Shown in pieces: positions 12,113-20,999 of a stretch of DNA of 64,000 bases; within the stretch, counting starts at the first letter, position 1, and every line of letters starts with the position of its first letter. The DNA is taken from the NCBI GenBank assembly GCA_000611775.1, contig KK106981.1:2789211-2853210 (forward strand). The letters are read 5' to 3'. Under the pieces are notes generated by a model. It was given only the letters and a program-made list of their open reading frames with translations, was not told the DNA's origin and searched no databases. Source of the DNA: Umbilicaria muhlenbergii (Eukaryota > Ascomycota > Lecanoromycetes > Umbilicariales > Umbilicariaceae). The position numbers and the translations under genes are program-made.

Positions 12113-13234
12113 ATGCTCATGGCGGTCCCTGGTGCCATCTGGAAGCCACCATGGAAGACGGCACTCTGTGCTTCTTTCAAAGTCCCATGTCTGTCGTTCC
12201 AATGTCTTTCTCAGTCCCACCCACCTCCTCCTCCACCATTTCCCGCCATCAAAACATGTCCATCCCCCACATGTTCATGTGCTGCCACCCCCGCCGGCCT
12301 CGATATAGATCATCAAAGGCCTCTATCGGGGACGATGCCAGCTTACAACCAGCATGTTGTGATTTGCACGGGAAAAAATGACTGGCCAAGTCGCATCGAA
12401 GATGAGAAACCTAGAGGGTTATTCAGACTTCGACCCCTTGCTCATCATCTGAAACGTTGCTTGGGGCCAAAGGGACCTTTGCACAATGTGAGTCGAGCTG
12501 GGAGGGGGTGTCCGAAAACATGCAGGATACTGATGTCATGGGGGCTCTAGCCCTACAACAATGTCATGATCACCAACTCCTCCTTCCCATCAGATCGGGA
12601 TCTATGGCTGAGTCGGAGTTGGATCAGTTCAGTCTATATATTCCCCAGTTTTCAGTATTTAAGAAGGCTTCCCAATTGGTCACTAAGCGCGCAGGCAATG
12701 GCTAGCGCGTATCTATTAGGCCCAAACCAGGAAGATCGAGCTGCCGCTGCCACGTATGCTGACCGCTTTGCGAATACCCGAAAGGGTTTCGACTCTCTTT
12801 GCCGGGAAGTCAGCGAAGTCATTGTTCTCATTTGCGGCCACGGCGGTAGGGATCAACGCTGCGGCGTCATGGGCCCTTTGTTAAAAGCACAATTTTTACG
12901 ACTCTTAGGCGCTCGAGGAGTTGATACCTTGGGCGGCGGCGGAAGGCGGTTCCCATTGGTAGCCGACATAGATCATAGCATTGTGCGGGCGAGAGTGGGC
13001 CTGGTTAGTCACATTGGTGGACACGCCTTTGCGGGCAATGTTATCATCTACGTCCCACCTTCCTTCACTGTGGGAGGTAAGAGGAACCCCTTAGCCGGAA
13101 AGGGTATCTGGTACGGACGAGTTGAACCAAAGCATGTTGAAGGGATCATTGAAGAGACCATCTTTAAGGGTAAAGTCATTGCCGACTTATTTAGAGGCGG
13201 CATCGAGCAGGGTGGCAATATTTTGCGTCTCTAA
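12113..13234 (+). CDS. AIM32: Aim32-like thioredoxin-fold ferredoxin (sucrase/ferredoxin-like family)
   Basis: Two exons, 12113-12487 and 12551-13234, with a 63-nt intron (GTGAGT..CTCTAG), phase 0, giving 373 residues minus the stop. Exon 1 carries TCPSPTCSCAATPAGLDIDH and YNQHVVICTGKNDW. Exon 2 carries NNVMITNSSFPS, the Cys/His motif CGHGGRDQRCG, SHIGGHAFAGNVIIYVPPS and GIWYGRVEPKHVEGI, all hallmarks of Aim32 relatives, which are thioredoxin-like [2Fe-2S]-type redox proteins of mitochondria. The first about 45 residues are basic with no acidic residues, fitting a presequence. The exact start is uncertain (a second ATG is two codons downstream, and an upstream exon using the CTTACAG at 12091 is possible). 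There is a loop of about 18 residues before SHIGGH. It is divergent from MTQ1. Confidence 0.85.
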
Positions 13235-13966
13235 TAGTTGGGACCTTTCGATACTATCGATGTCGGTTATTATCAAACATTAGGGTTTCGGTATCTATTA
13301 GGCGTGTGCGGTAAGGTTTGCTCTTAGAAGCATATGGTATCTGGCGCATTCCACTCATGATGGGAGCTGGGTGCTAGTTAGAAGAAGAGGGCATCCGGGG
13401 CATTCCACTCAGATCATAACACCGTACTTATATCTTGGTATTGCTATCCGCATCACCTGCTATATTGTTTATTGGCCTTAGCAGAAAGAAGTTAGCAGCT
13501 GGCTTCATTCTCGGTGGTTAAAAGCCTCCCGCCATTGTTCTCAGGCCCACAGACCCTAAGTAATCTCCTAATCCCATTGCCATCTCTCCTGCAAAGGTTA
13601 TGACACTCCTCTAACAAGTCCGAGTACAATCAAGTCTTCTCTCTTGTGAACTTCTATGTGTTTCTCAACAGCTGTTGGCAGCAGCCAAGATCTGGTGTAT
13701 AGGGTCAGATATCTCCGCGAGAGAACGTCAAAATTGCCCGGGAGTGAAGCTGGAAGCTCGCAGTAGCCCATTTTCTATCGCCGGTGATTGCGATATGACT
13801 TGTCATTTTTGTGCGTGTTTAGGAGGAAGCACCTAGCGTCGTGAGGTCCGTGCGCTGGTTTAATGTGGTTAGGGCTGGCGTTGACAATGGACAATGGGGG
13901 AAACATATAAAGATCTGCAAACGACAAAGAAAAAGAACAAGAAGACGTGGAGCAGCAACCAGAAGG
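13235..13966. other. Intergenic region before the Cys-rich array
   Basis: About 730 bp with no supported gene; two overlapping minus-strand frames near 13775-14010 look incidental. It contains paired short similarities (GGGCATTCCACTCA-like text near 13345 and 13400). The 3' end grades into the first repeat unit of the array. Confidence 0.4.
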
Positions 13967-14043
13967 CAATGGCATTGTTGAAGCCTCCCATAGTCATCCT
14001 CAGCGTACAAAGATCATAGAAAGCACCTTAACCGTCTATAAAA
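13967..14043 (+). promoter_or_regulatory. Array promoter, copy A (palindrome, ACAAAG motif, TATA block)
   Basis: CAATGGCATTG (an 11-bp palindrome around a central G) at 13967-13977 is followed by TACAAAGATCAT near 14006 and ACCGTCTATAAAA ending at 14043. The same three elements in the same order precede the other copies of this gene family. Confidence 0.6.
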
Positions 14044-14192
14044 CCCGCCATGATGACCACTCCAGTTGGACCATCAACTCCTGATCTCCTCAACACACCA
14101 AATTCAGTCACAAACCCACAGCTAAACCAACCGACACATCCACAGCAAGCAGCAAAAAACTCACCCCACTCACCTCACCGTCAACCGTCACC

Positions 14193-14381
14193 ATGTGTTC
14201 GCAAACAATCAAGTCCTACACCTGCGGCCACTCCGGCTACTACACACTCGTTCGCTGCGGCAGCAGAAGCTGCACCGTCGTCATGTTCTACTACGAGTAC
14301 AGCAGAAACGTGTGCAGAGACTGCAGCCGGGTGGACACCAACGGCAGGCCAAACGGTAACAATTCTTCCAGATACTACTGA
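14193..14381 (+). CDS. Small Cys-rich 'MC..CGH' protein, array copy A
   Basis: A 62-residue intronless product starting MCSQTIKSYTCGHSGYYTL, with later RCGSRSC and CRDC. The spaced Cys/His pairs (CGH, then C..C, then CRDC) look like a minimal zinc-binding fold; no known enzyme or toxin family is recognised. The start is chosen because ATG-TGT opens copies A, B and E identically and copy C as ATG-TGC, about 150 bp after the TATA block. A longer overlapping frame from 14050 is Pro/Thr/Ser low-complexity and starts in the leader, so I reject it. The 3' flank (GTGAGTCTTTCC..., then TGTAGCTTGGGG-like text) is shared with the downstream copies, showing the copies arose by duplication of a unit of roughly 0.7-1 kb. 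Confidence 0.62.
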   Translation: MCSQTIKSYTCGHSGYYTLVRCGSRSCTVVMFYYEYSRNVCRDCSRVDTNGRPNGNNSSRYY

Positions 14382-15085
14382 AGAGGAAGGAGGAGGTGAG
14401 TCTTTCCCGTCCGGGTTTGCTTTTTGGCTAGGTGTCAGATCGTAGCTTGGGGGGATTAGACTGGTTGTGGCGTTTTGGGCTTGTGGGATTGGTAAGTTAG
14501 TTAGGAAAATTGATACTTTTTTTCAATCAGATGTTACGCTCCATTGATATTTAAATCATAAAAATCTCATCAGATGCACGTGCGAAGAGAGCAATTTCAT
14601 GTTCAGCAAGTATAATTGATTTTTAGGCCTCTTTTGTCTTCACAGAAATTGTTGCAGATGTAGGAATTGAGCTTAATCAGGGCCTATGAAGCAGTCACGT
14701 CACCCATTAGTAGCAGTAGCAGGAGTAGTATTTAGTTTGCTTTGCTCAACGAAGCAATGGAAGATCTCAACTCAGAATTCTACACAGACACCGATCTTGA
14801 CACACGCTTGCAAAAAAATAACTTTATTCAGCATGTTTTCCATCTGCGGCATCAAAAGAAGATCAATAACATTCAAAAGTATACTCAAGAGGGGGAAAAA
14901 AGACATTGTGGAAGCCTTCAACAATATTCTCAGCTACGAAGACTGTACAAAGGATCTTGATCATTTGTTTGAATCATCATAACTATCACTTTATCTAAAC
15001 CATCACCTCCTGATCTCCTCATCACATTCACAGCAAGCATCATCAAGCGTCCTACCAACCTCTTTCTCAACCATTAACTGTCATC
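14382..15085 (+). repeat. Array spacer A-B, including a segment repeated at 30.8 kb
   Basis: Contains the shared 3' flank, a TTTTTCAA tract with CTCCATTGA, then a segment (14686-14800) that reappears at 30785-30890. Copy B's promoter follows in decayed form: AGACATTGTGGAAGCC near 14904 keeps only half the palindrome, GTACAAAGGATC is present near 14946, and the TATA block has become CTTTATCTAAACC. The leader text CCTGATCTCCTCA is retained near 15008. Confidence 0.6.
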
Positions 15086-15295
15086 ATGTGTTTTGCAGAC
15101 TACATCTTAGACGTCCTCTACGCAAGTCATCAGTGTTGGTACTACGTCCTGAATTGGATCAATCGCAACGACGGCTTCCACCCCGCAAACGAGGAATACT
15201 ATGGGAATCTTCGACGAGACGGCTGCAGCAACTACAGCCGGCCAGACATCAGTGATGAGTATAAACGTAGCAGTGGTACCGAAGAGAAAAAGTGA
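15086..15295 (+). pseudogene. Degenerate array copy B of the 'MC..CGH' gene
   Basis: An open frame of 69 codons beginning MCFADYILDVLYASHQCWYY and ending in the family tail EEKK. The position, leader and 3' flank match the other copies, but the CGH motif has become ASH and most Cys pairs are gone; the promoter TATA block is also altered. It still encodes an uninterrupted short protein, so it is either a decaying copy or one diverged beyond the family's Cys pattern. I favour decay because promoter and coding signals are eroded together. Confidence 0.5.
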
Positions 15296-15774
15296 GAGGG
15301 GGGCGTGAATCATTCCCATCCAGGTTTGCAGTTTGAATTATGCGTCAGGTTGTAGCTTCGGGGATTGAAATGACTGTGGCGTTATGTTGTGGTTGGGGGA
15401 TGGGTAGGTTAGTAAGTTAGGTAGAAGTTTTAGAACTCTTTTTCAACCTTATTATTCTTCATTGACTTGGTGATGAACTTTGAATATTGCACAATAGACT
15501 CATTGTAATCATAAGAACTAAGAATTTTGATGTCTAGATCGTGAAATGACTCAACAGATGCATGCGCGTTAATTTGGCTCTGCGCAAAAAGCAACACCAG
15601 GGACCGCTCTTAGTAAACACAGAGAGACAATATTATAAGAGAGTAACCTCACGTTCAGCACAGGTATGATTAGTTTCTAGAGCCCCTTTTGCAAAACCAC
15701 GGCTTTGTTGAATACTTTCATCCTCAACGTTAAAGGAAGATCAATAACGTCAAAAAGCATCTCAAGGAGAGAAG
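15296..15774 (+). repeat. Array spacer B-C
   Basis: Shared 3' flank (AATGACTGTGGCGTT, GTAGGTTAGTAAGTTAG, CTCTTTTTCAACC) aligned by eye with the flanks after copies A, C and D, then ATTTGGCTC/ACGTTCAGCA text also seen after copy A. No gene. Confidence 0.55.
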
Positions 15775-15924
15775 ACAATGGCATTGTTGAACAGTCATCT
15801 CCAAAGACAAAGATCGTACGGAAAGCATATCAGAGGGGAAAACAATAACATTGTTGAAGCCCTTAACAGCGAACATTTCTCCAAAACCAAGACCGTACAA
15901 ACACCATCAAACTGTCTATATAAA
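15775..15924 (+). promoter_or_regulatory. Array promoter, copy C, with two palindromes
   Basis: A perfect 13-bp palindrome ACAATGGCATTGT at 15775-15787, followed by ACAAAGATCGTACGGAAAGC. A second, one-mismatch version ACAATAACATTGT lies at 15842-15854, then AAGACCGTACAAAC and the TATA block ACTGTCTATATAAA ending at 15924. The doubling of the palindrome/ACAAAG block suggests a local duplication of the promoter. Confidence 0.65.
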
Positions 15925-16050
15925 TCATCACACTCAGCTCTCTCACGGAATCATCAGCTCCTGATCTCCTCATCCCACTCACAAAACCACAGCCAACTCA
16001 ACTCAGACATCCACAGCAAGCACCACTCAACCCCTCTCTCAACCGTCAGC

Positions 16051-16290
16051 ATGTGCATCGCAATCGTAACCTTCATTTGCGGTCACTCAAACTACTTCGG
16101 GGTCTGTTGCGGCGAAACCAACATCGAATCCCACACCACAAAGTACTACAAGGCCCTCGAAGAGCTCTGCAGCACCTGCAGCGGGAGGCCAAACCTCTGC
16201 AGCGACTGCGCCCTGGCTGACATCAACCACAAAGAAGATGGTAGCAGTGCTCCTGAAGAAGGTAGCAATGCTACTGAACAGAAGAAGTGA
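16051..16290 (+). CDS. Small Cys-rich 'MC..CGH' protein, array copy C
   Basis: A 79-residue product starting MCIAIVTFICGHSNYFGVCC and ending NATEQKK; the frame is open further upstream to 15778, but that would start before the TATA block, so ATG-TGC at 16051 is preferred. Cys/His spacing is CGH, then CC, then CSTCSGRPNLCSDC, giving the best-preserved putative metal-binding pattern in the array. There is no signal peptide or membrane segment, so a soluble intracellular protein is likely. Function unknown. Of the five copies this one has the most complete promoter and Cys pattern. Confidence 0.65.
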   Translation: MCIAIVTFICGHSNYFGVCCGETNIESHTTKYYKALEELCSTCSGRPNLCSDCALADINHKEDGSSAPEEGSNATEQKK

Positions 16291-16540
16291 GAGGGTGAGG
16301 TGAGTCTTTCCTGTCGAGCTTTGCTTTTTGTTGATGCGTCAGACTGTAGCTTGAGGGAGTAGAACTGGCTGCGGCGTTTGTGTTTGTGAGATTGAGTAAG
16401 TTGATAAGTTAGATAAAATAAATCATGACTCTTTTTCCAACCTGAGTATTCATCATTATTGACAATGACTTTGTTGAACATTCTTTCATCTGCCACATCA
16501 AAGACAAACCAACAACATCAAAAAGCATAGCAAAGAAAAG
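16291..16540 (+). repeat. Array spacer C-D
   Basis: Shared 3' flank after copy C (GTGAGTCTTTCCTGTCGAGC, GCGTCAGACTGTAGCTTG), then CTCTTTTTCCAACC and a one-mismatch palindrome ACAATGACTTTGT near 16461. Confidence 0.55.
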
Positions 16541-16605
16541 ACAATGACATATTTGAGGAAAGATGCACAAAGACCGTGAGAGGAACACTAACCGTCTATA
16601 TAAAA
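16541..16605 (+). promoter_or_regulatory. Array promoter, copy D
   Basis: ACAATGACATAT at 16541 is a degraded palindrome. GCACAAAGACCGTGAG follows and the TATA block ACCGTCTATATAAAA is intact at 16591-16605. Confidence 0.5.
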
Positions 16606-16728
16606 CCCTCACACCCACCTCCTTCACAGAATCATCAACTCACTGATCTCCTCACTACACCCACAAACCCACAGCCAACTCAACTCACACATCCACAGCA
16701 AGCACCACTCTTCAAAAACACATCACCC

Positions 16729-16956
16729 CTGTGTTTCGCAGTCGTCACCTTCAACTGCGGTCACACTGAGCTGTACGCCTTCAATCGCTGTGAAACAGAC
16801 AACAACGGCTCACACGCCACAAAGTTCTGGAAGGCCCCCGAAAAGTGCTGCCACATCTGCAGCCCGCCCATCTGCAACTCCGGCTCTCAGCCCATCGCTG
16901 AGCGCATCGCCGTCGAGGGGGTTGAAGTTAGCACTGTTACCGAAGAGAAGAAGTGA
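16729..16956 (+). pseudogene. Array copy D of the 'MC..CGH' gene, conserved start codon replaced by CTG
   Basis: Where the other copies have ATG-TGT/TGC, this one reads CTG-TGT (16729-16734), followed by the intact family sequence CFAVVTFNCGHTELYAFNRC, then CCHICSPPIC, and the tail EEKK. The Cys pattern and promoter are well kept. The next in-frame ATG upstream (16576) lies before the TATA block and would probably not be in the mRNA. So either translation begins at the CTG, or a downstream start is used, or the copy is dead through loss of its start. Close similarity to copy C (VTFxCGHxxxY) suggests a recent split. Confidence 0.55.
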
Positions 16957-17564
16957 GAGAGGGTGAGGTGAGTCTTTCCTTTCCGGGTCGGCTCTTTGGG
17001 TTCCGCGTCAGACTGTAGCTCGGTCGGCTCGTTCGGGAGAGTGGGGAACTGGCTGTGGTGGTTTTTTGAGCTTGTGGGTGGTTGAGGTAATTAGGTAGGA
17101 AATCAACAAACACTCTTTTTCAACAGATGTTCTGCTCCATTCCATTGACTTGATGAAGGATTCTGAATGCTCTGAAAGCCCATTTGCGACAGTGATGACA
17201 TGTGTACTATTGAGTTACCTTGAGATCGTAATAAACTGACTAGGCCCAGTCGCGTTTGGTATGGCCTTGCGCAAAGAACGAATGTGAGGGAACCCCTTTT
17301 GGAAGACGCAGCCGTTTGGAAGACGCACAGAGTGACAATGTAGTAAGAGAGCAAATCCATGCCTACGCATAGAGACAATGTAGTAAGAGACTAAATACGC
17401 CTCCAGCAAGCGTGATTGGTTTCCGGGACTTCCTATGGCTGCGCTGAATATATTGCGGACAGAGAGCAGCAGAAAAGGCTGCAAAACGATGGCTTTGCCA
17501 ATGGAGTGTAGATCCACGATGTCAAAGGGAATTCAGCGACATCGAAGAGCGTGACAAAGGAAAA
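16957..17564 (+). repeat. Array spacer D-E
   Basis: Shared 3' flank (GTGAGTCTTTCCTTTCCGGG, GACTGTAGCTCGG), CTCTTTTTCAACAGATG with CTCCATTCCATTGACTTG, then an internal duplication with GACAATGTAGTAAGAGA twice (near 17330 and 17372). No gene. Confidence 0.55.
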
Positions 17565-17717
17565 ACAATGGCATTGTACGGGAGCTGCAGAAGGACACAG
17601 CGCCAAATTCATACAAAACAACCACAACAAAGAAAAGACAATGGCATTGTACACAAACTGCACAAAGGCAGAGTAGCATGTACAGAGACATCACGTCTCA
17701 CTTAACTAGTATATAAA
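17565..17717 (+). promoter_or_regulatory. Array promoter, copy E, with two perfect palindromes
   Basis: ACAATGGCATTGT occurs perfectly at 17565-17577 and again at 17638-17650, 73 bp apart. TGCACAAAGGCAGAG follows the second, and TATATAAA is at 17710-17717. The palindrome-to-TATA distance of roughly 65-70 bp matches copies A and C. Confidence 0.68.
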
Positions 17718-17856
17718 CCTGTAGAATCCCTCAAGTTCATCTCCATCGCTCGACTTCACCCTCAGCAGATCCTCAGCAGACACCAGAACACCACCAGCAG
17801 CCTCAACCCTCCCATCAGCCAGTCCGCCAAGCTCATCCCGAGCCCCCACCGCAACG

Positions 17857-18279
17857 ATGTGTAAAGGCTTCAACCGCCAATACACCCAATGCGGGCACAT
17901 CAAAGAGTACGTCATCCTCAGCCAGTGTCCCTTCGGCATGACCACCTCCAACCCCCCCTCCCCCGGCACCTGCGACGGTCCCAGACAAGAAATCCTCTAC
18001 ACCGAGATGCTGGAATCCCCCAGTATCTGCCGCGCCTGCTACACCGCAGAAGAAGCATTCATCTTCAGCGTGTACGCAGACGAGATCGAGAACATCAACG
18101 CGAGCATGGACGACATCCGGGAGATCCTGCGGATCGCGCTGGTGTTGGACGACGAAACGCGGAGGGAGTTGGAGGCGGAGCTGGTGCACCTCCAAGAAAG
18201 CTTGGACGACGCGATCGCGGACCGGACTGGCGCGCTGAAGGCCTACCGGAGATCGCAGGGTGTGTGGGGGGACGGCTAG
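17857..18279 (+). CDS. Longer 'MC..CGH' protein with C-terminal helical extension, array copy E
   Basis: A 140-residue intronless product starting MCKGFNRQYTQCGHIKEYV. It keeps the MC...CGH start and a later CRAC (about residue 59), but its spacing differs from copies A-D, and from about residue 75 it continues as a charged, heptad-like helix (DETRRELEAELVHLQESLDD), probably a coiled coil. It has the richest promoter in the array. It looks like the older, full-length family form from which the shorter copies may derive, or a related gene that seeded the array. No enzyme domain recognised; a small metal-binding adaptor is a guess. It is convergent with LYS4. Confidence 0.7.
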   Translation: MCKGFNRQYTQCGHIKEYVILSQCPFGMTTSNPPSPGTCDGPRQEILYTEMLESPSICRACYTAEEAFIFSVYADEIENINASMDDIREILRIALVLDDETRRELEAELVHLQESLDDAIADRTGALKAYRRSQGVWGDG

Positions 18280-18503
18280 ACGAGAGGTAAGTCCATCCAC
18301 GAGCCGCTCAAGGGCTGAAAACCGCGCAGGTTGTTTTCTCTCGGTACGGCTTCGGCTGGCGTTGGAGTAAGGTAAGTCTGGTACGGTAGGTTCGCTTGCG
18401 AGTCGAATCGCACAGATAGAGCAATCGAAACAATTCCCATCCAAAATGTTCCCACTAGTACTATGCACCCATGTGAATTGAACTGTAGGCCCTCTTGTAC
18501 TGG

Positions 18504-20999
18504 TCAATATGTAGAGGCTTCAATCTCTTTCTTCACCCATTTCTCCAACCCACCTCTGGCGATAATCTCCTGCACGTTAGGAGGTAGCTCTCCCACTTTC
18601 TGACTCCACCTTGCCCCGTCTTTGCCCTCTTGAATCTCGACCCTGCTTCGCCTCACATCCCATTTGAACGTCCAGCCAGTCCGACGTGTAAGCTTCCTCT
18701 CTTGACTTGGCGTGTTTTGAGGAGCTGGCGGTGGCGAGTCTAGTGACTCCCAGTTGCCTTTGGGTTCCTTGATGTCTCTCTGTGAAACCTCCGCGGGCGC
18801 ACCTGAGAATGTCTCTCTTAATCTGTGAACAAGTTTGGGTACTTCGACGCCCATTAGTGCATTGTTAATGCTGTTGCGGGAAAAGATGTTGCCAAAGCTG
18901 CCTGCCACTACCAGTGGGATCTTCTTGGCGAGAATCGCTGTAGCCGCCTGCTCTCTTGAGCTTCCGCATCCGAAGTTGAAGCCGGAAACAAGAATATCGC
19001 CTCCTTTGGCTATTGAAGCGAATTCGGTATCGTAGTTCTCCATACAGACTTGCGCCATCTTCTCCACGGTAACATCATCTTGATAGGTATACTTTCCAGG
19101 ATAAATACCATCAGTATTGATGTTGTCGGCATCACAAAAGACGATTTCTCCCTCGACCTTTTCGGGGAATCCAGGGAGCACCTCCGTTAGAGCAGCTTCG
19201 TCCTCTTTTGATGCGGCTTCACCTCCATGTATGTCCTTTTCCGCTGTGCTGACCAAATCGTCCATTTGCCCTATGATTTTCTCAAGCGCTTCTTCCGCGG
19301 TGATCATCCTGTCTTCTTCCCTTATCCCATCGCCTTCGCCTCGGACCACACCCGACCAGCCTTCAGGCCGCTCGTACCACCCTGGGCCGTTAATCTTTCC
19401 AGTCAGAGCGCTTGCAGCTACCACCTCTGGACTTGCCAAATATGCTTTCGCATCTGTGGAACCCATGCGACCCTTGAAGTTGCGATTACTGGCAGAAATT
19501 CCAACCTCTCCAGGTTCAAGCAATCCAGTCCCGAGCCCGATGCATGGCCCGCAACCGGCCGGTAATGGTTGAGCACCAGCTTCTAACATAGCTTGCCAGT
19601 CGCCTGCCTCTTCTGCGGCCAGTTGCTCGGGCGTCGAAGCCGCCGCAATGTAGAAATTGACACCTTCAGCGATCTTAGGGATTTTCCCGCCGTTCGTTTC
19701 TGCAGCATCTTTGAAGACCTTCGCGGCTGCTGCAAGATCGGAAGCACGAGAGTTAGTACACGAGACTAGATATGCCCTGTTAATTTTGATGTCTTGCGCT
19801 GCAAGCTCGTTCAAAGGTGTGGCAACTTTGACCGAATTGGGACCCGAGACATATGGGGAAAGCGTAGAGAGGTCAAGATGTAAATACTTTGCATACTTAG
19901 CACCCTTGTCTGCAGAGAGCTGGTTTGCTAGAAGTTCCTCCACTCGCGGATGCGTAAACCTCTTAATCGTGGACGCTTCGGTGAGTCCAGCATTGTTGTA
20001 TAAAGCGGCCTCTGTAGCTTTGTACCGTAGCCAGCCTGCTAGAACCGAGTCGATTGGGAACAAGCCAGTCAAGGCGCCCCATTCGGTGGTCATGTTTGCA
20101 ATCGCTAACCGGTCATCAACTGGCAAGCTCCTCATCGTTTCCTCCGATCCGATGAACTCAATGGCGTGATTCAACACTTCGTCTTTATTGAAGAGTCCAC
20201 ACAAAGCGACAACCACATCTTTCCCTGTAACGCCCACTGGTAGAATGCCGGTAAAGGTGACTTTGGCGATGGGTGGAATCTGCCACCATGTCCGCCCGGT
20301 CGCCCAGATGCTGGCTGCGTCCGTTCTCACAACTGGTGTACCCAGACAGCCGATTCCTCCGTACATGTTTGTGTGGCTGTCCGAAGCGACCGCCAACGTT
20401 CCAGGCCAAGCGTAACCCTCCTCAACCATAATTTGGTGTCCAATGCCCCTTCCAGCAGGGTAAAAATCGACACCCTGTTTCTTCGCAAACTCCTCAATCT
20501 GTCTGTATTTCTTCAAGTTGGATTCGCTCTTGTTCTGAACATCATGGTCAAGGGTCATCACTATCTGGTTCTTGTCATGAATCTTCGATGCTCCAATGGA
20601 CATGAACTTCAGGGCGACGGGCCACGAGTTGTCGTGTGTCATACAGTGATGTGGTGAGAGGGTGACATAGTCGCCAGACTTGACGAATTTGTCCTTGGAT
20701 AGACCAAGAGAATAACGCTGAACAATCTTCTCTGTAAGGGTCTGGGGTACGCGCGGTGATGTTTTTAGAGAGGACAGGATAGCAGCGGACGAAGGATCTT
20801 CCAGCTGAGAGTGAAAGACCTCTTGACGACGAGCGTTTGACGTCGTATATAACCGCGGCTTGTGATACAGGGCCCTTCTCAATGGCAGAGCCGTGGGTGC
20901 TCGGCATCGAAGCACAAGAGATGCAGTACGCCCCTGAACTCTGTGTTAGCGATTCGACACGGATGGAGATGCCAGGACCGAGAATTTGCTTACCAACAT
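18504..20999 (-). CDS. LYS4: Homoaconitase, mitochondrial
   Basis: Two exons on the minus strand: a 6-nt first exon 20999-20994 (ATG TTG), a 60-nt intron (GTAAGC..TTCAG) and exon 2 at 20933-18504, giving 811 residues. The joined N-terminus [20 protein letters not shown] is a good mitochondrial presequence; without the micro-exon the frame has no ATG in this region. Aconitase-fold signatures are present: [35 protein letters not shown], and the cluster-ligand cysteines in [11 protein letters not shown] and [10 protein letters not shown], with the C-terminal swivel domain ([15 protein letters not shown]). The enzyme converts homocitrate to homoisocitrate via homoaconitate in fungal lysine synthesis. 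It faces SER1 across a short divergent promoter that contains a Gcn4-type site. Confidence 0.95.

What the first reader, a model, noticed from the sequence alone, without database searches (positions are those of the whole stretch)
13960..18300. Tandem array of a small Cys-rich 'MC..CGH' gene family with shared promoters
Five units in the same orientation each carry the same leader or 3' flank and encode (or once encoded) a short protein starting Met-Cys, with CGH and later Cys pairs. Copies range from intact (A, C, E) through a lost ATG (D) to a lost motif (B). Copy E alone has a long helical C-terminus. No known family is recognised. A local expansion of a putative small metal-binding protein under common control is the best candidate here for an undescribed system.
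Basis: partly seen in the sequence, partly recalled or inferred. Interest (0 to 1): 0.78.

Follow-up and report, generated by a model that had tools for sequence, protein, structure and literature searches.

The report
Palindrome-marked MC-CGH small-protein gene array
In what is probably a lichen-forming fungus, five neighbouring small genes for cysteine-rich proteins share a 13-letter mirror-image DNA element that also sits in front of similar genes elsewhere in the genome, which suggests one small set of jointly controlled, fast-changing proteins of unknown job.

Summary
The array is real. Units A-D (13.96-17.1 kb) are old duplicates (flanks 57-76% identical); A and C are intact, B has lost CGH, D has lost its ATG. 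Two more units lie on other contigs (C2, C5). Unit E has the same Met-Cys...Cys-Gly-His...Cys-x2-Cys skeleton but no alignable DNA; its family (26 database proteins, the named ones from Lecanoromycetes) has an invariant C-terminus QGVWGDG and no Pfam match.

The new result is the promoter. Intact units carry a 13-bp palindrome, ACAATGNCATTGT (A with one mismatch), about 70 bp upstream of a TATA box; B and D have degenerate copies. Genome-wide there are 16 perfect sites (about 5 expected). Eight precede MC-CGH ORFs, including two ORFs (C1:3.169 Mb, C1:6.157 Mb) that homology searches did not link to the array. The palindrome thus looks like the shared control element of a small dispersed gene set. 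Its CATTGT half-sites suit an HMG-box protein, which is inference.

A-D coding sequence diverges faster than its flanks; the skeleton persists. AlphaFold gives E a stranded domain with the Cys/His residues, then a helical hairpin. Metal binding, regulator and function are untested. The species, probably Umbilicaria muehlenbergii, is inferred.

The parts
13966..13978 (.). palindrome of unit A, GCAATGGCATTGT (1 mismatch)
   Evidence: 227 bp before ATG, 70-71 bp before TATA
14036..14043 (+). TATA box of unit A
14193..14381 (+). unit A ORF, 62 aa, intact MC-CGH skeleton; nearest to the C2:3564772 copy
14897..14909 (.). remnant of palindrome in unit B (3 mismatches); no TATA match
15086..15295 (+). 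unit B ORF, 69 aa, CGH replaced by ASH; degenerate
15775..15787 (.). distal palindrome of unit C, perfect
15842..15854 (.). proximal palindrome of unit C, ACAATAACATTGT (1 mismatch to ACAATGNCATTGT), 75 bp before TATA
15917..15924 (+). TATA box of unit C
16051..16290 (+). unit C ORF, 79 aa, intact; best protein match elsewhere is C5:849604
16541..16553 (.). degenerate palindrome of unit D (3 mismatches); TATA at 16597 kept
16729..16956 (+). unit D reading frame, 75 codons from CTG, no ATG, skeleton otherwise kept
17565..17577 (.). distal palindrome of unit E, perfect
17638..17650 (.). proximal palindrome of unit E, perfect, 72 bp before TATA; the surrounding stretch resembles upstream readings of homologues P0001 and P0002
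17710..17717 (+). TATA box of unit E
17857..18279 (+). unit E ORF, 140 aa: MC-CGH domain, helical hairpin, C-terminal SQGVWGDG; family with named members in Lecanoromycetes

Best explanation
The region is a birth-and-death array of small genes whose products share a skeleton of five Cys and one His (M-C-x7-9-C-G-H-x6-10-C...C-x2-C, usually with one more Cys or His between) and which are switched on together by a dedicated promoter module: one or two copies of the palindrome ACAATGNCATTGT, the proximal copy about 70 bp upstream of a TATA box. Shown: the array, copy states, element spacing, dispersed copies, the element before two further MC-CGH ORFs, loss of the element in the two degenerate units, and E's relatives in Lecanoromycetes. 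Inferred: a dimeric DNA-binding protein, most likely of the HMG-box type, occupies the palindrome; the proteins are small zinc-binding folds (Cys-Gly-His plus Cys-x2-Cys as one site, Cys2 and the middle Cys/His as another); E is the long-lived member whose helical hairpin and invariant tail contact a partner; A-D are fast-changing lineage-specific versions of the N-terminal domain.
For: ACAATGGCATTGT occurs 10 times in 34.8 Mb against 1 for the reversed control; with any centre base there are 16 sites (read) against about 5 expected from 3 in 20 Mb random. Eight of 16 precede MC-CGH ORFs by 216-426 bp: C, E twice, the C2 and C5 copies, L019 twice, L021. The ORFs in L019 and L021 find only themselves by protein search and were not found with C. 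Flanks outside the 13 bp differ between unrelated loci. Proximal element to TATA: A 71, C 75, E 72, C2 70, C5 71 bp. B and D have three mismatches, and B has no TATA match. E reaches 51% identity to an Umbilicaria vellea protein, with conserved Cys and tail; upstream readings of P0001 (MALYKTYTRAE) and P0002 (NNGIVRNLHKGRA) parallel the window's DNA around its proximal palindrome (MALYTNCTKAE, DNGIVHKLHKGRV). E model: mean pLDDT 89, strands 2-9, 15-22, 44-52, helices 59-93 and 99-134. Three zinc-domain Pfam families match one E-family member each, weakly (E 0.047-0.098).
Against: No expression data. Six of the 16 sites lie in the array or its C2/C5 duplicates, so they are partly one inheritance; outside them 10 sites at 7 loci compare with about 5 expected, and only 2 of those 7 loci have an MC-CGH ORF. 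One-mismatch sites add little: 1 of 45 examined (unit A itself) precedes an MC-CGH ORF, and 23 of 68 were not examined. L021's perfect site is 426 bp out with no TATA within 200 bp, and L019's nearest is 172 bp from its TATA, so spacing varies. Profile similarity of E to A-D is weak (25 columns, probability 16%, E 0.0015 for this one comparison). Cys/His residues beyond the skeleton vary, and single-pair tests of C/H conservation are marginal (p 0.037-0.054).
Confidence: 0.58

Rival explanations
1. The palindrome is only ancestral sequence carried along by duplication of one unit; there is no regulon.
For: A-D, C2 and C5 flanks are alignable over hundreds of bases; the site at C5:850345 lies just past a duplicated D-E spacer without an MC-CGH ORF after it.
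Against: E, L019 and L021 have the element without alignable flanks; L038 has two copies before an unrelated ORF with TATA 63 bp away; the element itself is lost in B and D.
Confidence: 0.2
2. The palindrome's ATG is a conserved translation start or upstream ORF rather than a DNA-binding site (ACAATGG resembles a start context).
For: Predicted protein P0001 starts with it and P0002 and P0003 read through it; unit C's long ORF from 15778 is in frame with MC.
Against: Its frame relative to the MC ATG varies (0, 1 or 2 over 7 sites); at E's proximal site a stop follows; it lies upstream of the TATA box; A/T-centred palindromes keep both halves.
Confidence: 0.07
3. A-D are decaying non-coding repeats; the reading frames are accidental and only E is a gene.
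For: pN/pS is 0.55-1.23 over 15 pairs and coding parts are less conserved than flanks in 13 (upstream) and 14 (downstream) of 15 pairs; no relatives at E <= 10 among 138 candidates from 5.8 billion proteins; B and D are broken.
Against: A, C, C2 and C5 keep open frames and the whole skeleton at 40-44% identity for the closest pairs; skeleton ORFs did not occur in 20 Mb random DNA.
Confidence: 0.2
4. The proteins are secreted small cysteine-rich effectors acting on the algal partner.
For: Small, Cys-rich, fast-changing, probably lichen fungus.
Against: By eye the N-termini (MCSQTIKSYTCGH, MCIAIVTFICGH) lack a signal peptide's hydrophobic stretch; no signal-peptide program was run. Cys with a fixed His suit metal as well as disulfides.
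Confidence: 0.1

Closest known systems
Palindromic SOX (HMG-box) dimer sites of vertebrates (PMC4445065, PMC6265484; passages seen)
   Same: Half-site CATTGT / ACAATG in inverted repeat; a test probe in PMC4445065 has aacaatg-4 bp-cattgtt
   Different: Spacer is 1 bp here against 3-5 bp enriched for SOXE (0-2 bp still bound, about 10-fold less cooperatively); fungal regulator unknown
Uncharacterised Lecanoromycete proteins ending QGVWGDG (Umbilicaria vellea LQ347_006284, Lasallia pustulata FRX48_02011 and FRX48_09050, Pseudocyphellaria aurata MMC07_001931)
   Same: E is a relative: MC start, Cys/His skeleton, helical part, identical tail
   Different: Named only hypothetical protein in the sources; no function known
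Treble-clef / RING-like zinc domains (recalled)
   Same: Cys-x-His turn between strands and Cys-x2-Cys at a helix start in the E model
   Different: No Pfam match over cut-off for A, B, C, E; metal never measured
Metallothioneins (recalled)
   Same: Small, Cys-rich
   Different: A has 6 Cys in 62 residues, several Tyr, a fixed His and no Cys-x-Cys

Membership tests
QGVWGDG MC-CGH family (defined here; unit E) | full-length similarity to Lecanoromycete homologues | tested here: met
   26 proteins at E <= 1, best 2.6e-89; not every one covers the whole query
QGVWGDG MC-CGH family (defined here; unit E) | invariant C-terminal QGVWGDG | tested here: met
   invariant in 27 aligned sequences; one exact place in this genome
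QGVWGDG family, for units A-D | C-terminal QGVWGDG and helical part | tested here: not met
   tail absent from A-D translations; profile link only over 25 columns
MC-CGH skeleton group (defined here) | M-C-x7-9-C-x-H-x6-10-C-x3-40-C-x2-C | tested here: met
   7 of 7 MC-CGH ORFs: A, C, E, C2, C5, L019, L021; B fails, D lacks Met
HMG-box (SOX-type) dimer site | CATTGT half-sites in inverted repeat | tested here: met
   sequence; half-site from PMC4445065 passages
HMG-box (SOX-type) dimer site | 3-5 bp spacer between half-sites (SOXE) | tested here: not met
   1 bp spacer
HMG-box (SOX-type) dimer site | HMG-box proteins encoded in the genome | tested here: met
   8 matches to PF00505 over cut-off, one only with its neighbours in the frame
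HMG-box (SOX-type) dimer site | binding of such a protein | not testable with these tools
   needs a DNA-binding assay
Known zinc-finger families (Pfam) | profile match over curated cut-off | tested here: not met
   A, B, C, E and C2, C5, L019, L021 (none at E <= 0.1); for E relatives best E of any family 0.023, zinc families 0.047-0.098 in one member each, cut-offs not printed
Treble-clef zinc fold | structural match | tested here: inconclusive
   see tried and rejected
Secreted small cysteine-rich effectors | N-terminal signal peptide | tested here: inconclusive
   none seen by eye translations; no program run

The most novel reading that the evidence does not exclude
A lichen-fungus regulon in which a strict 13-bp palindrome, read by an HMG-box dimer, is kept across loci while the proteins it controls turn over: several unrelated-looking MC-CGH zinc mini-proteins, an S/Y/D-rich protein and perhaps a divergent amidoligase pair, with the conserved QGVWGDG protein E as core member.
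Probability: 0.35. Interest if true: 0.7.

Novelty: new variant of a known kind. Interest (0 to 1): 0.56.

Why it matters
If true, a sequence tag of 13 bp would give a handle on a set of small orphan proteins in lichen fungi that similarity searches cannot assemble, and on the regulator behind them. If the species is Umbilicaria muehlenbergii, it can be transformed (PMC3999499), so the switch, its regulator and the role of E are directly testable.

Tried and rejected

Papers. CAATGGCATTG: 18 papers, titles seen, none on a fungal promoter element, none opened. GVWGDG: 0 papers. Lichen small cysteine-rich proteins: listings only, 20 of 200 and 15 of 38 papers shown, no title on these proteins. 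SOX/HMG palindromes: 0 papers with two sets of terms, 90 with a third, 10 listed, two seen by passages. CAATGACAG with alpha1 and mating: 3 irrelevant papers. N-degron idea for the Met-Cys start: 0 papers, not pursued. PMC10620189: term search found no mention of cysteine, effector, secreted protein or HMG in the main text. tRNAs in the window: 0. The palindrome ATG as a conserved start codon was rejected on frame.
Full report
Setting. The window is G000:C1:2789211-2853210 of a genome of 34,788,950 bases in 7 contigs. E's best named homologue is from Umbilicaria vellea, and the paper PMC3999499 (read except the end of its reference list) reports 34,812,353 bp in seven scaffolds and 47.12% GC for U. 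muehlenbergii. That species is likely, not proven; the window's own GC is 52%. The array lies between a Suc_Fer-like ORF (12566-13234) and an aconitase-family ORF (18504-20642, minus strand).

Array. Units A-D share upstream and downstream sequence. A and C are open from ATG; B keeps an open frame but reads ASH for CGH; D's frame starts with CTG with no in-frame ATG. Two further units were found by protein and DNA search: C5:849604, which resembles unit C and the spacer between D and E, and C2:3564772, which resembles unit A, mostly at about 70% identity. Such searches give lower bounds. All copies look old, so this is a long-lived birth-and-death family, not a recent burst (inference).

Selection. 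Over 15 pairs of A, B, C, D, C2 and C5, upstream flanks exceed coding identity in 13 and downstream flanks in 14. pN/pS is 0.55-1.23. Yet the skeleton is kept in A, C, C2 and C5. Tests of all C/H columns in four overlapping pairs gave p of 0.037, 0.04, 0.042 and 0.054, so the support from conservation alone is modest.

Unit E. It has no DNA match elsewhere in the genome and its protein finds only itself there. The 140-aa protein has 4 relatives at E <= 1 by single search and 26 by profile search; the named ones are from Lecanoromycetes, most are unnamed. Among 20 aligned members Cys12, 24, 39, 58 and 61 are invariant and Cys2 and His14 nearly so; QGVWGDG is invariant in 27. AlphaFold predicts a three-stranded N-terminal part and a helical hairpin, mean pLDDT 89, lower (56-68) between residues 21 and 40. 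The order of strands and possible ligands resembles a treble clef (Cys-x-His turn, Cys-x2-Cys at helix start), which is my reading; the fold searches were inconclusive (tried and rejected).

Promoter palindrome. ACAATGGCATTGT occurs 10 times genome-wide (7 forward, 3 reverse) against 1 for the reversed control. With one mismatch the list has 100 rows against 25; 32 of the 100 rows are perfect ACAATGNCATTGT sites counted on both strands, which gives 16 perfect sites and 68 others (my reading). Random Markov-1 DNA gave 3 per 20 Mb, about 5 per genome. The 16 perfect sites: C distal, E distal, E proximal, C2 unit, C5 unit, C5 orphan past a duplicated spacer, L019 twice, L021, L038 twice, L020 twice, L015, L037, L039. 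Eight of 16 precede an MC-CGH ORF. Of the 7 loci not belonging to the array or its duplicates, 2 have one (L019, L021). Among 45 of 68 one-mismatch sites examined, only unit A's does; 23 were not examined. In 209,761 bases scanned, made up of the window and these loci, the only MC-CGH ORFs are the seven family members.

Architecture. The proximal element is 70-75 bp before TATA in A, C, E, C2 and C5 and 209-227 bp before ATG. In L038 two elements stand 95 bp apart, the nearer 63 bp before a TATA box and 199 bp before a 271-aa S/Y/D-rich ORF without Pfam match. B has only a three-mismatch remnant and no TATA match; D has three mismatches and keeps its TATA. Thus the two broken genes are also the two with broken elements. 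Outside the 13 bp, unrelated loci share nothing obvious. Upstream readings of P0001, P0002 and P0003 contain the element's letters as MALY, NNGIV, or MALLN and NNGIV, which matches the window's DNA in the corresponding frames; this is indirect evidence that relatives keep the element before E.

Regulator. SOX HMG domains recognise CATTGT-like sites and SOXE proteins dimerise on palindromes with 3-5 bp spacers, and less cooperatively with 0-2 bp (PMC4445065, passages); SOX18 uses AACAAT inverted repeats with a 5-bp spacer (PMC6265484, passages). The fungal element has a 1-bp spacer between ACAATG and CATTGT. The genome has 8 HMG_box matches over cut-off, two of them neighbours that may be one gene. 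An HMG-box regulator is therefore a reasonable but untested guess.

Verdict.

Noticed in passing
L041 (C1:847600-851700), 2036 and 2141: Two one-mismatch palindromes 105 bp apart lie between divergent ORFs that both match Amidoligase_2 (PF12224).
   Followed up: partly
L038 (C4:3003000-3007100), 1981 and 2076: Two perfect palindromes and a TATA box in front of a 271-aa S/Y/D-rich ORF with internal repeats and no Pfam match.
   Followed up: partly
window just after the stops of A-E; L013, L014: A splice-donor-like GTGAGT or GTAAGT begins within 15 bases after the stop codon in A, C, D, E and C5 (variants in B and C2): a possible 3'-UTR intron.
   Followed up: no
C7:666007-666065: Three ACAACGGCATTGT sites spaced 23 bp, a short tandem repeat.
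   Followed up: no
window 17325-17408 and 15617-15660; C5:850190-850260: A repeated spacer stretch with the words GACAATGTAGTAAGAGA or GACAATATTATAAGAGA carries single ACAAT(G) half-sites.
   Followed up: no
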